In this document: positions 1,029 through 11,649 of the stretch, piece after piece
Layout: every line of letters starts with the position of its first letter
Position numbering within the stretch: position 1 is the first letter of the stretch
Virus record (IMG/VR): IMGVR_UViG_3300035034_000168
Location: 1-21,736 of that record
Reading direction: 5' to 3' (one strand)
From: a virus
Length of the DNA stretch: 21,736 nt
Translations under genes and position numbers: made by a program
Notes under the pieces: generated by a model
Told to the model about the DNA's origin: nothing
Database searches by the model: none
The model's input: only the letters and a program-made list of their open reading frames with translations

Positions 1029-2285
1029 TTATACTCCTATTACTTTTGATATATTTGCCGTTGCAACGCCCATTACCTTTGCTATAGCAGCAGGCGCTAC
1101 TCCGTTTACTGTGTTTGCGTAATTACCGCCAGCACCCGCAGGCGTGACAAATATTGCCCCCGATACAGCGTATAACGCTGCATTAGAACCTGTTGCTCTA
1201 AAGTTTAGCAAATCTCCTGAACTAGCAGAATCCGTATTGATAGCGTCTGTGTAAACTGCGTCTGTCGATGCAGCTATGGTTATATTCTGGTTAGCGTCTA
1301 CCCCCCCGATGCGCAGAGCAACTGCGGTGGGACTTGTTGATCCGTTAAACCTAGATTTAATAGCCATGTTTTTTATATTTATATCAAAAGGAGTCGGCCA
1401 CTGCACAAGAGACTCGGTTGCTCCCCCAGTTATTTCACCGCACAATGGGAAAAAATTTGCTGAGTTTAATTCATTTAACCCAGTCGAACCTAAGATGAAC
1501 CCCGTTTCTGCGGGATCGAATTTATGCCCGCTGCCTTTTAATACTATACCCCCAGACCCCGACCCTGTAGTTATTGACGTATTGTAGAAATCACCAAGAC
1601 CTATGGTGTCTGTGTTGGTAACATCCTCTTTTACTCCTGTTTGTCCAGATGAATAAGCCACCGTCTGATTGCCATTACTTCCGTTTTTTCTGAACCGAAA
1701 AGTGGTTGTAGATGTCCTTGCGTTAGATGATACATTTATTTGGAAATTGCTGGAAGTCCCTGCAATAGGTGAAACCGCTGCATAACGTTCATCTGTTGAT
1801 AGTCCATTAGCTCCCCTCAAGGGTATATACCTTGTGGTACTCGCATTACTCATAATTGTGTTGCTGTCACAGTTTTCGGGGAATGCTGAACCACTTGAAG
1901 GCTCAAATTGAACCTCAATAAATTGTGTAACTATAGACCCGCTGCCTGTCGATGTAACTTGCCTTAATGATAGAGTATCTCCGTCTGAAATTGAAACGCT
2001 ACCAGTTGCCGATTGTGTGCCAGTTGCACCCCCCGCCACCGTCAGTGTCAGCGCAGAAGCCGAACCATTGACCATTAAAGCATAGGTAGTGTTTGTGCCT
2101 CTACCGTTCGATTTAACTATTGCCCTGATTAATGTGGCATTTCCTGCAACTCGACATGTATGCGCTGCATCACTTTCTGTTGTCTTTGAAAAAATGGCGT
2201 ACGAGTTACCTATAGGGCAGTATCTTGTAGCACTGTTTGTGGAAAAACCAAAAGCATTTGCCGAGGATGATATAATCTTTGCCAT
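1029..2285 (-). CDS. Virion/tail protein with three tandem beta-rich modules
   Basis: A 418-aa protein, low in Lys and rich in Gly, Ser, Thr, Asn and Ala, typical of extracellular phage structural proteins. I see three diverged copies of one module, about residues 20-127, 151-256 and 276-381. Each starts with an aromatic-x-P motif (RYCPIG, RYIPLRG, NFFPLCG), continues through a strand with NG or GG turns (MVNGSAS, RKNGSNG, RIGGVDA) and ends with a GD plus TGS segment. Behind them, residues 393-418 form a short tandem peptide repeat, VNGVAPAAIAK then VMGVATANISK then VIGV. An AGGAG ribosome binding site lies about 8 nt before the ATG, inside the preceding gene. No named family was recognised. 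It probably decorates the tail or capsid or forms a receptor-facing appendage. Confidence 0.75.
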   Translation of the reverse strand: MAKIISSSANAFGFSTNSATRYCPIGNSYAIFSKTTESDAAHTCRVAGNATLIRAIVKSNGRGTNTTYALMVNGSASALTLTVAGGATGTQSATGSVSISDGDTLSLRQVTSTGSGSIVTQFIEVQFEPSSGSAFPENCDSNTIMSNASTTRYIPLRGANGLSTDERYAAVSPIAGTSSNFQINVSSNARTSTTTFRFRKNGSNGNQTVAYSSGQTGVKEDVTNTDTIGLGDFYNTSITTGSGSGGIVLKGSGHKFDPAETGFILGSTGLNELNSANFFPLCGEITGGATESLVQWPTPFDINIKNMAIKSRFNGSTSPTAVALRIGGVDANQNITIAASTDAVYTDAINTDSASSGDLLNFRATGSNAALYAVSGAIFVTPAGAGGNYANTVNGVAPAAIAKVMGVATANISKVIGV

Positions 2286-2752: not shown

Positions 2753-5134
2753 TTACGCAACTTCAACCCAAGCGCCGCTTGGTAAAAAGTAAACTACATC
2801 CGCTGAAATAGCATACCCTGCAACACGAACTATATCACCTGTTGCTGATGGTGCTGTTTCTGTTAATTCTCCCGCCGTTAAGCCTACATACAATATAGCG
2901 CCTACAGTCCAATTATAAGTATCGTCACGAACAAAGCTACCAGATAATGCAACTATCATAGGGTTAGTGTCGCTTGAGGCTTCTACGGATATCCCTAGCA
3001 TACCTGTTGCCGTTGCCGCTGCATCTGCATCCGTTTTTAGCCATTTACCACCTGACCCTAGATAACATAACTCACCTATGCCAATAGTTGCGCCTGCGTT
3101 AATCGTGTTAGTTGTTAATCCTGTTGCTGTGTGGTCTGCATCTGGCGTTGCGTCAATCCGCAATTCTTGAACGTCTGTTATCTTTTGACCATTTGCGTCT
3201 AAATCACCACCTAATTGTGGTGATGTATCTGTGACAATATTTGGCGCTATATCAGCCGTTCCGTCAAAACTAACACCGCCAATGTTTCTAGCTGTTGCAA
3301 GTGCCGTAGCCGTTCCCGCATTGCCTGATACCGCCGTTTGGTCGCCTGTGTTTGTACCTGATAAATTATTAGCCGCTATATTACCTGAGTCATCAGCCGT
3401 TACACCGCTATCTTGTAGCAATTTACCTGTTGTTGTGTCAAATCGTGCTAAGGCGTTATTTGTTGCGCTAGATGGTCCAACTACATCACCACTCCCGCCC
3501 CCGCCAAACTCTGAGAAATCCGCATATTTTAAGACGTTACTATCGGACGTATCTTGTATTAAAATCTTGTCATTACTAGCAGGCGTTCCTAAATCCGTTA
3601 GCGTTGCACCGTCAAGAGCGTCAGTTACATTAGCTTCGTCTGTGACATCAGCGCTCGTTTCAATTCCCGATAATTTCGTTTCTTCTGCAGACGTATAACT
3701 TGCCGTTGTATTATCTAAAACGGTGGCATGCGCCTGTACGTCTGAGCCGATTGCAAGACCTAAAGTAGTCCTTTGAGCTGAGGCGTTTGCATCATCTAGT
3801 ATAGCCCTGCCTGCTGCTGTGCAAGCTATTTCTTGAACAACGCCACCGCCTGAGCTTGAACGCCCTAGCAGCCTATCTGTAGCAGTGGTATTTTGCATCT
3901 TAGCATAAGTAACAGCGTCATCAGCTATTGTTGCCGCATTACCACTGGACGTTACATCGCCTGTTAAATTTGCATTAGTTGTAACTGTGTCCGCATTACC
4001 TGTTACATCACCTGTGATATTTCCCGCAAAACCAGTAGCCGTTAGTATCGCTGTCGAACTATTAAATGTTATACCAGAATTAGTCTTAGGCTCTAAATCG
4101 CCTGTTGCTGCGGTAAAAAAGGCTGGAAAACAAGTAGTATCACTTGCTTCATCTGCTACGGTTATATCTGTTGGAGTTCCGCCACCGCCGCCCGCTGGTA
4201 AATCATCGTAATCTATCTGTCTATTGCCTACGCCCGCTTCAAAAATAATTAACTTATCACCAGAAGCAAAAGCCGTTCTCGCCGTTAGATTCTCGATATC
4301 TATTGCGGTTGCTATTTCTGCGCCTGTCTGGTCTGCCGTTGCACTAGCCTCAATACCTGCCAACTTAGAGACTGCCGCATCATCATAAGCGTTGGTATCA
4401 GCATTTGCCTCATAAGCCGCCTTAACCTCGCTATTGGTCATATCACCAGTGTTTGTACCTGATAAATTATTAGCCGTAACATTGCCAGAGTCATCTATGG
4501 TAGCGCCGCTATCTTGGATAGCCTTACCAGTTGTTCCGTCATAACGTGTGATTGCGTTATTCGTTGCACTAGATGGTCCAACTACATCACCTGAGCCTGC
4601 AACCGCCCCCGCTTCCCATTTATTAGTTGCTGAGTTGTATTTTAAAACCTGCCCATTTACCGCATTAAATACGTCTGTATCTTCTAGTTGGTCTAATTCT
4701 GTATAAGAGTTACCATGCCATTGTGCGTTTTGACCGTCTTTACCTTTTAAAGATTTAATAAAATCTTCTTCCTCACCTTCATTTCCTTGACTTAACCAAA
4801 CTTGATAAGCTGATGCACCGTCTAATCCCGCTACTCCTTCGGCTCCATTTAAGCCCTTGTCACCTTTGGCACCAACCTCACCTTTTTCTCCCTTTGCGCC
4901 TGTCTCACCTTTTTCTCCCTTTGCGCCTGTCTCACCTGCCTCTCCTTTTTCGCCACGTTCTCCACGTTCTCCACTCGCACCTACTTTGCCCGCTTCACCT
5001 TGCAAAGAATCTATCATTTGATTTAACAAGTCTCGAGGTTTTGGCAATATAGCTTTATCACCCTTATCACCCTTCTCGCCTTTTTCCCCTTCAAAACCTA
5101 AGTTTATATTGAGTAAGTCGTCAAATTCATCCAT
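2753..5134 (-). CDS. Collagen-like tail fibre protein
   Basis: A 793-aa fibre. It starts with a short acidic segment, then Gly-X-Y triplets at about residues 16-27 and an unbroken run of 21 triplets at 46-108, rich in GEK, GAK and GER, which should form a trimeric collagen-like rod. Next comes AYQVWLSQGNEGEEEDFIKSLKG (109-131 in outline), a motif common in phage fibres. The shaft has repeats: residues 181-231 and 548-598 are near copies containing GDVVGPSSATNNA and NNLSGTNTGD, with KLAGIEASA/KLSGIETSA variants between. The C-terminal 120 residues are a compact beta-rich domain, probably the tip. The ATG directly follows the TAA of the XkdW-like gene. Role: host adsorption. No endosialidase or lyase motif was seen. 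Confidence 0.85.
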   Translation of the reverse strand: MDEFDDLLNINLGFEGEKGEKGDKGDKAILPKPRDLLNQMIDSLQGEAGKVGASGERGERGEKGEAGETGAKGEKGETGAKGEKGEVGAKGDKGLNGAEGVAGLDGASAYQVWLSQGNEGEEEDFIKSLKGKDGQNAQWHGNSYTELDQLEDTDVFNAVNGQVLKYNSATNKWEAGAVAGSGDVVGPSSATNNAITRYDGTTGKAIQDSGATIDDSGNVTANNLSGTNTGDMTNSEVKAAYEANADTNAYDDAAVSKLAGIEASATADQTGAEIATAIDIENLTARTAFASGDKLIIFEAGVGNRQIDYDDLPAGGGGGTPTDITVADEASDTTCFPAFFTAATGDLEPKTNSGITFNSSTAILTATGFAGNITGDVTGNADTVTTNANLTGDVTSSGNAATIADDAVTYAKMQNTTATDRLLGRSSSGGGVVQEIACTAAGRAILDDANASAQRTTLGLAIGSDVQAHATVLDNTTASYTSAEETKLSGIETSADVTDEANVTDALDGATLTDLGTPASNDKILIQDTSDSNVLKYADFSEFGGGGSGDVVGPSSATNNALARFDTTTGKLLQDSGVTADDSGNIAANNLSGTNTGDQTAVSGNAGTATALATARNIGGVSFDGTADIAPNIVTDTSPQLGGDLDANGQKITDVQELRIDATPDADHTATGLTTNTINAGATIGIGELCYLGSGGKWLKTDADAAATATGMLGISVEASSDTNPMIVALSGSFVRDDTYNWTVGAILYVGLTAGELTETAPSATGDIVRVAGYAISADVVYFLPSGAWVEVA
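3348..3490 (-). repeat. Direct repeat copy B within fibre gene
   Basis: This 143-nt segment matches 4449-4591 at a constant offset of 1101 nt. It contains an exact 28-nt match (3348-3375) and an exact 23-nt match (3468-3490). It encodes the second shaft repeat of the collagen-like fibre. The offset is a multiple of three, so recombination between the copies would remove 367 codons and keep the frame. Confidence 0.8.
4449..4591 (-). repeat. Direct repeat copy A within fibre gene
   Basis: Partner of 3348-3490, with exact matches at 4449-4476 (28 nt) and 4569-4591 (23 nt). It encodes the first shaft repeat of the fibre, directly after the collagen-like region. Confidence 0.8.
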
Positions 5135-10482: not shown

Positions 10483-10785
10483 TTACACTCCTATTTGAAA
10501 TCTTCTGCGTGGTCCAGCTTGTCGCACTTCTTGCTCTTGACCGCCGCCTATATTTTGCATCATACCCTGAGGCGTTGCACCGCCCATTTTGCCACCTGAC
10601 AACACACCTAATAAGCCTTTGCCTTGTGTCGCACCTTGCATACCACCACCCATTGTAGAACCTGCCATTTGACCTAAGCCACCTGCGCCGCCTAATATAT
10701 TAGCTAAGCCACCTGCGCCACCTAAGCCGCCTGCTGCGCCACCCGCTCCTAGTGAGCTAATGAGTGGTATTAGAAATTGCATCAT
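10483..10785 (-). CDS. Glycine-rich 100-aa protein, probable internal virion component
   Basis: A 100-aa protein with extreme glycine content: residues 13-80 are mostly Gly, Ala, Leu and Met in GG, GAGG and GxxxG patterns. The N-terminus is hydrophobic (MMQFLIPLISSLGAG) and the C-terminus basic (RQAGPRRRFQIGV). GGAG lies 8 nt before ATG 10785, and the start overlaps the end of the GNAT-like gene by 29 nt in another frame. Glycine zippers and a hydrophobic start suggest a membrane-inserting or self-assembling role, and its place ahead of three ejection genes suggests it is packaged in the virion. No family was recognised. Confidence 0.65.
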   Translation of the reverse strand: MMQFLIPLISSLGAGGAAGGLGGAGGLANILGGAGGLGQMAGSTMGGGMQGATQGKGLLGVLSGGKMGGATPQGMMQNIGGGQEQEVRQAGPRRRFQIGV

Positions 10786-11221
10786 AATAAATACTCCATA
10801 CCGTGTGCCTTGGTTTATACTTCGCTCGTTTTAACAGCGCACCTATTCTTTCATCTTTTAGAATATACGTTGTCTCCATAACTCCAGCCGCTTTTAAAAA
10901 TTCGTCTGAGTTCCTTACAAGTTCTAGCGTTATCTTTCCTCTGTATTGGGGATGTACCCATATTCCTGTATTTGCTGCCTCAACCACTGTCTTGTGGTTC
11001 ATATTCACGCCCATGCAAAATACTGAATAAGCTACTAAAACCCCTTTATCTCTTGCGGTTACTGCTTTGCAAGCGCCCATTTCGCTTTGCATAAGATAGT
11101 TTTCCCAATCTAAATTAGGTCTACCATAATCGTCTTTTTTATCCACATCGTCATAATGCGTATTTATATTCTGCGCTATTTCTTCTGCCACCTCATGAAA
11201 AGGCACGAAATCAAATATCAT
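10757..11221 (-). CDS. GNAT-like protein, gp13-type internal virion candidate
   Basis: From ATG 11221 this encodes 154 aa; that ATG overlaps the upstream TGA as ATGA and has AGAGG 5 nt before it, so I prefer it to ATG 11272. The fold order looks like a GCN5-type acetyltransferase: an N-terminal helix (FHEVAEEIAQNI), strands around residues 50-70, a strand TGIWVHPQYRGKIT (86-98) matching the acetyl-CoA binding QxxGxG/A region only partly (QYRGKI), then a helix and KDERIGALLKRAKY. T7 gp13, an internal protein needed for assembly, has a similar layout. The degenerate motif makes active acetylation uncertain. It sits between neck and ejection genes. Confidence 0.6.
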   Translation of the reverse strand: MIFDFVPFHEVAEEIAQNINTHYDDVDKKDDYGRPNLDWENYLMQSEMGACKAVTARDKGVLVAYSVFCMGVNMNHKTVVEAANTGIWVHPQYRGKITLELVRNSDEFLKAAGVMETTYILKDERIGALLKRAKYKPRHTVWSIYYDAISNTTH

Positions 11222-11649
11222 GTTGCCTCTACCACCCCCATTATATTTATAGGAGATGTAACCGTAGACCATGCAGGAACGTATATTCTATTACTTGAAG
11301 CCTCTACCATCCCGATACCACCGCCCAATTTATTTGATACTGTCGCACAAAATCCATTAGCATAAGACGTTACTGGCAGATTACCCACGTAAGTAGTCCC
11401 CGCTGTAGCAGATGTATTTGTGGCTGGTGTAACTAATATGTTGAAATATGTTAGGTATTTGGATAATTGATAATAACGACCTGCTATAGTCGCTACCCCA
11501 CCAACTTCCGTTAAACCGCTAAATGTAGGAGTCCACGCCGTTCCACCGTCACCGTTAAACGTTTGGTTAAAATAGAGAATCCAAGGCATTGAGATTGCCC
11601 CATTGTCTTCTATTAATTCTTCACGTATAGGAGGAGCTTCCGTTGTCAT
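11218..11649 (-). CDS. Virion-associated 143-aa protein, beta-rich
   Basis: A 143-aa protein with an N-terminal extended part (TEAPPIREELIEDNGAISMPW) and a beta-sandwich-like body containing WTPTFSGLTEVGG and YYQLSKYLTYFNILVTPA, then SNRIYVPAWSTVT near the end. I recognise this layout from a common set of phage structural proteins whose role is not defined. It occupies the position where P22 carries gene 26 (tail needle), yet it lacks the long coiled coil of a needle. Its ATG overlaps the gp10-like stop by 4 nt, and its TGA overlaps the GNAT-like ATG. GGAG lies about 9 nt upstream of the start. Confidence 0.7.
   Translation of the reverse strand: MTTEAPPIREELIEDNGAISMPWILYFNQTFNGDGGTAWTPTFSGLTEVGGVATIAGRYYQLSKYLTYFNILVTPATNTSATAGTTYVGNLPVTSYANGFCATVSNKLGGGIGMVEASSNRIYVPAWSTVTSPINIMGVVEAT

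What the first reader, a model, noticed from the sequence alone, without database searches (positions are those of the whole stretch)
1029..2285. 418-aa virion protein built of three tandem copies of one unnamed beta module
Residues 20-127, 151-256 and 276-381 repeat with about 130-residue period, sharing an aromatic-x-P start, NG/GG turn and GD...TGS end, although sequence identity is low. One chain with three related domains could mimic a trimer, or give three binding sites on one appendage.
Basis: seen in the sequence. Interest (0 to 1): 0.6.

Follow-up and report, generated by a model that had tools for sequence, protein, structure and literature searches.

The report
One-chain trimer-like phage knob protein
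This phage gene, read on the minus strand, makes one protein chain of three similar jelly-roll domains; dozens of very distant phage relatives carry exactly three (twice, six) such domains, so one chain probably does the job of a three-chain fibre tip, a design previously known mainly from engineered proteins and a few mussel proteins.

Summary
The 418-aa ORF (minus strand, 1029-2285) is three copies of one ~130-aa beta module. AlphaFold2 gives three jelly rolls (residues 1-132, 133-261, 262-390; pLDDT 85.9, pTM 0.83). The module has no family in Pfam, NCBIfam or PHROGs. Homology scans recovered about 50 distinct relatives, nearly all from uncultured phages and mostly 20-35% identical. Every complete multi-module protein has exactly three modules (48) or six (2); none has two, four or five, even when the query was a single module. 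In both six-module proteins module i is closest to i+3, so the triplet is what duplicates. Module positions 1/2/3 cluster on a tree. Single-module relatives sit on collagen or at the C-terminus of tail-fibre proteins, which are normally trimers. Foldseek's best PDB matches include the engineered single-chain trimers of C1q and APRIL-BAFF, but whole-chain superposition fails (TM 0.24), so the threefold geometry is not demonstrated, and one module alone is a generic jelly roll (TNF, BclA and carbohydrate-binding modules tie). Best reading: a natural single-chain pseudo-trimer acting as a tail-fibre or baseplate adhesion knob. Trimer mimicry is likely; virion location and receptor binding are inferred.

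The parts
1029..2285 (-). 418-aa triple-module protein gene (including stop)
   Evidence: ORF and translation; AGGAG upstream of ATG; HMM and AlphaFold2
1890..2285 (-). module 1, residues 1-132 (jelly roll, strands 4-129)
   Evidence: AlphaFold2; HMM E 3e-19
1503..1889 (-). module 2, residues 133-261 (jelly roll, strands 135-258)
   Evidence: AlphaFold2; HMM E 9e-28
1116..1502 (-). module 3, residues 262-390 (jelly roll, strands 263-382)
   Evidence: AlphaFold2; HMM E 2e-22
1032..1115 (-). C-terminal tail, residues 391-418, 11-residue repeats (AAIAKVMGV / ANISKVIGV); low-confidence short helices; possible anchor
   Evidence: same type of tail in L013
2288..2647 (-). 119-aa ORF directly upstream, its 3' end carrying the triple gene's ribosome-binding site; function unknown
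2753..5134 (-). 793-aa collagen-like fibre protein, upstream neighbour
   Evidence: Pfam Collagen E 6e-12, PHROG tail fibre matches

Best explanation
The gene encodes a natural single-chain pseudo-trimer. Three jelly-roll modules, each equivalent to one subunit of a homotrimeric fibre-tip knob of the C1q/TNF/BclA type, are fused head to tail and pack as one compact unit. It most likely sits in the adhesion apparatus (fibre or baseplate) and binds a cell-surface ligand, probably at the clefts between modules, as homotrimeric TNF-like lectins do. Fusing the three lets each module diverge on its own, giving a hetero-trimer from one gene. Shown: three modules; the jelly-roll prediction; a confident whole-chain model; strict copy number of 3 or 6; duplication by triplets; clustering of modules by position. 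Inferred: threefold ring packing, virion location, ligand binding.
For: Copy number: 48 distinct complete ORFs with 3 modules, 2 with 6, none with 2, 4 or 5; the two ORFs showing 2 are cut by a contig end. The 54 intact 3- or 6-module ORFs fall in 47 clusters at 70% identity. A scan with a single module as query gave 39 contigs, again with 39 three-module ORFs. In both six-module proteins module i matches i+3 best. Module position is clustered on the tree: 47 changes against 70.8 +/- 3.5 with positions permuted inside each protein, 0 of 1000 as low. Single-module relatives: C-terminal cap of a collagen-like protein (L015), and C-termini of proteins encoded near the triple gene that match phrog_7049 'tail fiber'. 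AlphaFold2 pLDDT 85.9, pTM 0.83 for the whole chain; residues 133-142 form a strand in the full chain but are poorly ordered (pLDDT 59) when module 2 is folded alone, so they seem to depend on a neighbour. Foldseek PDB hits 1, 2, 4, 5 and 6 are a Cbln1 C1q trimer entry, single-chain C1q heads and single-chain APRIL-BAFF-BAFF. Context: neighbours include tail fibre, tape measure, sheath, endolysin; L019 is fused to tail protein phrog_2048, E 1e-26; in phage Bajun the homologue lies between tail proteins and the baseplate spike gene. TNF-like lectins bind sugar between adjacent protomers (PMC12914763).
Against: Whole-chain superposition on the engineered single-chain trimers fails (TM 0.24, rmsd about 22 A), so the modules are not arranged in the same circular order, or not as a TNF-type ring at all. 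One module alone does not discriminate TNF/C1q from carbohydrate-binding modules (Z 8.6 CBM16, 8.3 EDA, 7.8 BclA). No C1q or TNF family match for any member. Common descent alone could keep the number at three. No experiment shows the protein in virions.
Confidence: 0.6

Rival explanations
1. Three independent carbohydrate-binding beta-sandwich modules strung in a row on one chain, giving avidity rather than a closed pseudo-trimer.
For: Module 2 alone matches CBM16, CBM35, CBM36 and CBM6 as well as TNF/BclA; whole-chain superposition on closed single-chain trimers fails.
Against: Beads for avidity would be expected to vary in number, but copy number is fixed at 3 or 6; the triplet duplicates as a unit; pTM 0.83 predicts a fixed inter-module arrangement; strand 133-142 is ordered only in the full chain.
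Confidence: 0.22
2. A structural or decoration element of the virion (collar, capsid or fibre spacer) built on the same triple jelly roll, with no receptor binding.
For: No N-terminal anchor and a short repeated C-terminal tail in the window; long repeat arrays after the triplet in many relatives; one relative weakly matches a head decoration family, E 0.009.
Against: Fusion to a tail protein in L019, position next to the baseplate spike gene in Bajun, single-module versions on tail-fibre C-termini.
Confidence: 0.13
3. Copy number three is only inherited from one ancestral triplication and has no functional meaning.
For: Positions 1/2/3 are clustered on the tree, which fits one old triplication for much of the family.
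Against: About 47 clusters, mostly under 50% identity to each other, all kept three, and the only departures are doubled triplets; tandem modules usually change in number over such divergence (general knowledge).
Confidence: 0.05

Closest known systems
Engineered single-chain trimers: single-chain C1q head (5hkj, 5hzf), APRIL-BAFF-BAFF (4zch); also the Cbln1 C1q domain trimer entry 5kca
   Same: Three jelly rolls in one chain of about 400 aa with short linkers; among the top Foldseek hits over the whole chain.
   Different: These are man-made (linkers described in PMC13097705); no sequence family in common; the whole-chain superposition fails (TM 0.24).
Mussel C1qDC proteins with three tandem C1q domains (HcC1qDC6, 444 aa; PMC5519582)
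   Same: Natural chain of three C1q-type jelly rolls, similar length and spacing; domains 24-159, 167-302, 305-443.
   Different: Animal secreted immune proteins with real C1q profiles; the word 'trimer' does not occur in that paper; no C1q profile match for the phage family.
BclA C-terminal domain / ExsFA, spore-surface trimeric caps on collagen-like stalks
   Same: Jelly roll; a single module at the end of a collagen stalk as in L015, which hits BclA_C weakly (E 0.045); structure matches at Z 7.6-8.7.
   Different: One module per chain; far below Pfam's cut-off (14.1 against 38 bits).
Single-domain phage fibre knobs: lactococcal phage 1358 RBP, Agrobacterium phage 7-7-1 tail fibres, phi812 central spike knob, phrog_7049 tail-fibre C-terminus
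   Same: Phage virion domains with the same fold (Z 8.4-9.3); phrog_7049 matches the single-module neighbours.
   Different: One such domain per chain as far as these matches show.
TNF-like lectins BC2L-C N-domain and PLTL
   Same: Trimeric TNF fold; sugar bound between adjacent protomers; BC2L-C N-domain Z 8.0 on module 1.
   Different: Homotrimers; no sequence relation found.

Membership tests
C1q/TNF superfamily | Jelly-roll beta sandwich of about 10 strands | tested here: inconclusive
   Each module is predicted as a jelly roll; 4-1BBL Z 9.4 on the full model, but carbohydrate-binding modules tie on module 2 alone
C1q/TNF superfamily | Recognised by the C1q or TNF sequence profiles | tested here: not met
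   No C1q, TNF or BclA_C family among Pfam matches of 47 members; no credible PDB sequence relative
C1q/TNF superfamily | Trimer around a threefold axis | tested here: inconclusive
   pTM 0.83 and copy number 3 or 6 favour it; no coordinates available; superposition on single-chain trimers TM 0.24
BclA C-terminal domain (PF18573) | Pfam score above cut-off | tested here: not met
   Window protein no match; relative L015 14.1 bits against cut-off 38
phrog_7049 tail fibre | PHROG profile match | tested here: not met
   Window protein none; 1 of 47 triple proteins at E 1.7e-4; single-module neighbours E 1e-5 to 3e-13
Carbohydrate-binding modules (CBM16/35/36/6) | Fold plus sugar-binding site | tested here: inconclusive
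   Fold similarity Z 7.3-8.6; no binding site examined
Triple-module phage protein family (defined here) | Exactly three modules matched by the iterated module HMM in one ORF | tested here: met
   Window ORF: three matches, E 3e-19, 9e-28, 2e-22

The most novel reading that the evidence does not exclude
A widespread, unnamed phage family in which a homotrimeric fibre-tip knob was turned into one gene: natural single-chain hetero-pseudo-trimers in which copy number is locked to multiples of three and each position has evolved separately.
Probability: 0.55. Interest if true: 0.65.

Novelty: new variant of a known kind. Interest (0 to 1): 0.52.

Why it matters
Phage fibre tips are normally homotrimers, so all three faces evolve together. 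A single-chain version would let the three faces diverge, giving asymmetric or multi-receptor tips. It would be a natural counterpart of the engineered single-chain C1q and TNF proteins, and it is directly testable with the cultured Brevundimonas phage Bajun. It would also give a name to an unannotated family found in dozens of uncultured phages.

Tried and rejected
Known family by sequence: Pfam, PHROGs, NCBIfam and PDB sequence searches gave nothing credible; scattered hits such as Nup188, HAMP_2 or EMG1 match one to three members each and were treated as chance. Assignment of the module to TNF/C1q by fold: not decided, as unrelated carbohydrate-binding modules score the same on module 2 alone. 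Same circular order as engineered single-chain trimers: not supported. C-terminal tail as a widespread anchor: no match in phage records. Named phages with the module: only Bajun. Literature on natural pseudo-trimers of this kind in phages: none found in the held library.

Full report
What is there. The finding's ORF lies on the minus strand, 2285 down to 1029, 418 aa. It starts with ATG behind an AGGAG that overlaps the stop of the preceding 119-aa ORF, so translation is probably coupled. The window is a 21.7-kb virus record with a P22-type block: portal (Pfam E 1e-155), P22 coat, scaffold, head closure Hc3, ejection protein, then fibre genes. Reading along the minus strand, the order around the finding is: 793-aa collagen-like fibre, 119-aa ORF, the triple protein, then two small ORFs with hydrophobic stretches.

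The repeat is real. Modules 1/2 and 2/3 align at about 30% with no shuffle as good; modules 1/3 alone are marginal. An iterated module HMM finds all three copies strongly. AlphaFold2 on a 47-sequence alignment gives three jelly rolls, pLDDT 85.9 and pTM 0.83. A pTM this high for a chain of three equal domains means that the relative placement of the domains is predicted with confidence; free beads would be expected far lower (inference).

Relatives and the rule of three. Homology scans gave about 50 distinct proteins, from IMG/VR contigs, one small contig binned in a Dehalococcoidia MAG (L013) and one cultured phage, Brevundimonas phage Bajun. Typical identity to the window protein is 20-35%. 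HMM counting shows 48 distinct complete ORFs with three modules and two with six; ORFs with two occur only at contig ends. At 70% identity there are 47 clusters, and the best match of the window protein is 32%. The first scans used the triple protein as query, so a further scan used one module: 39 contigs, 39 three-module ORFs, only two of the contigs new. A protein with two, four or five modules would have been found as easily. The scans do rely on a conserved motif (F-E-D-T-T-x-T/S-D) and are biased against single-module proteins that lack it.

Triplets are the unit. In both six-module proteins (L010 and Bajun) each module scores highest with the one three places on. On a tree of 156 modules the position labels need 47 changes against 70.8 +/- 3.5 when positions are permuted within each protein (near-copies removed). 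The tree has few columns and many weak forks, so it shows clustering, not one clean triplication.

Single-module relatives. A module caps a collagen-like Arthrobacter protein (L015), and weaker copies form the C-termini of 210-270-aa proteins encoded close upstream of the triple gene in L005, L025, L036 and L052. Those four match phrog_7049, tail fibre; two also match tail-protein families at their N-termini. Collagen stalks and phage fibre tips are trimeric as a rule (established knowledge; phage collagen fibres PMC3368898). So where there is one module per chain three chains are expected, and where there is one chain there are three modules.

Structure comparison. Foldseek hits 1, 2, 4, 5 and 6 over the whole chain are a Cbln1 C1q trimer entry, single-chain C1q heads and single-chain APRIL-BAFF-BAFF, E 4e-9 to 3e-6. 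However TM is about 0.24 and rmsd about 22 A. The single domains fit, but the triangle does not superpose in the same order. A ring that runs the other way round would give such numbers, and so would an open arrangement; this is unresolved. In the VIA list, five alignments of single-domain trimer formers (ExsFA twice, EDA-A1, C1ql3, adiponectin) span model residues 1 to 385-397. This hints that the N-terminal strand lies beside module 3, as a closed ring needs; only end points are printed, so this is weak. Residues 133-142 form a strand in the full chain (block pLDDT 85-91) but not when module 2 is folded alone (pLDDT 59), which points to pairing with a neighbouring module. Module 2 alone is a plain jelly roll matched equally by carbohydrate-binding modules, TNF relatives and BclA. 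BFVD holds other viral proteins of about 400 aa that align over the whole chain, including a Caudovirales 'C1q domain-containing' protein and giant-virus proteins, so the architecture may be wider than this sequence family.

Context for function. Genes beside the triple gene match tail fibre, tape-measure, sheath, head-tail adaptor and endolysin families in different phages. L019 carries a tail-protein domain (phrog_2048, E 1e-26) behind the triplet. In Bajun the six-module gene lies after two putative tail proteins and before the baseplate central spike gene, then holin and spanin. This places the family in the adhesion part of the virion in phages of several types. Long repeat arrays or a Ser/His-rich stalk follow the triplet in many relatives; in the window only a 28-residue repeated tail does.

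Mechanism proposed. The chain folds into one compact knob of three jelly rolls attached through its C-terminal part, perhaps as the cap of a fibre, and offers three similar but non-identical clefts between modules to a surface ligand, as TNF-like lectins do between protomers. Shown: repeat, fold prediction, copy-number rule, triplet duplication. Inferred: ring packing, place in the virion, ligand.

Novelty. No named family covers it. Three tandem C1q domains are known in mussels and single-chain trimers have been engineered, so the kind is known. A phage family locked to multiples of three was not found in the literature searched.

Noticed in passing
window 2753-5134 (-): 793-aa collagen-like fibre (Pfam Collagen E 6e-12) with a different C-terminal domain, close upstream of the triple gene.
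   Followed up: partly
window 1032-1115 (-); L013 685-1971: C-terminal 11-residue repeats of the type A-x-I-x-K-V-x-x-V, shared by the window protein and L013 only; no match in phage records.
   Followed up: partly
L082 3893-7246: Triple module followed by roughly 600 residues of Ser/His-rich repeats (SSSSH), apparently a stalk, then a different C-terminal end.
   Followed up: no
L027, L040, L053, L054, L057, L023 (C-terminal parts of the triple ORFs): Long arrays of short degenerate repeats (roughly 15-20 aa) directly after the triplet; different sequence in each phage.
   Followed up: no
L008 966-1373, L020 6374-6847, L026 162-572, L034 1481-1876, L037 6563-6958, L054 6087-6488 and others: A small conserved Cys/His protein (RWxPDTCxC ... 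CxxH) encoded directly upstream of the triple gene in many relatives, not seen in the window.
   Followed up: partly
L047 6929-8668 and 8972-10738; L022 4745-6316 and 6320-7576: Two adjacent or nearby triple-module genes in one phage, suggesting paired or alternative knobs.
   Followed up: no
window 10757-11272 (-): Acetyltransferase-like ORF (phrog_1249) inside the head/ejection gene block.
   Followed up: no
L014 146-331: Module fragment (62 aa ORF) on a contig binned as Nitrososphaeraceae archaeon; Foldseek also finds a Nitrosopumilus spindle-shaped virus protein (A0A514K2V8, 128 columns at 1.3 A).
   Followed up: no
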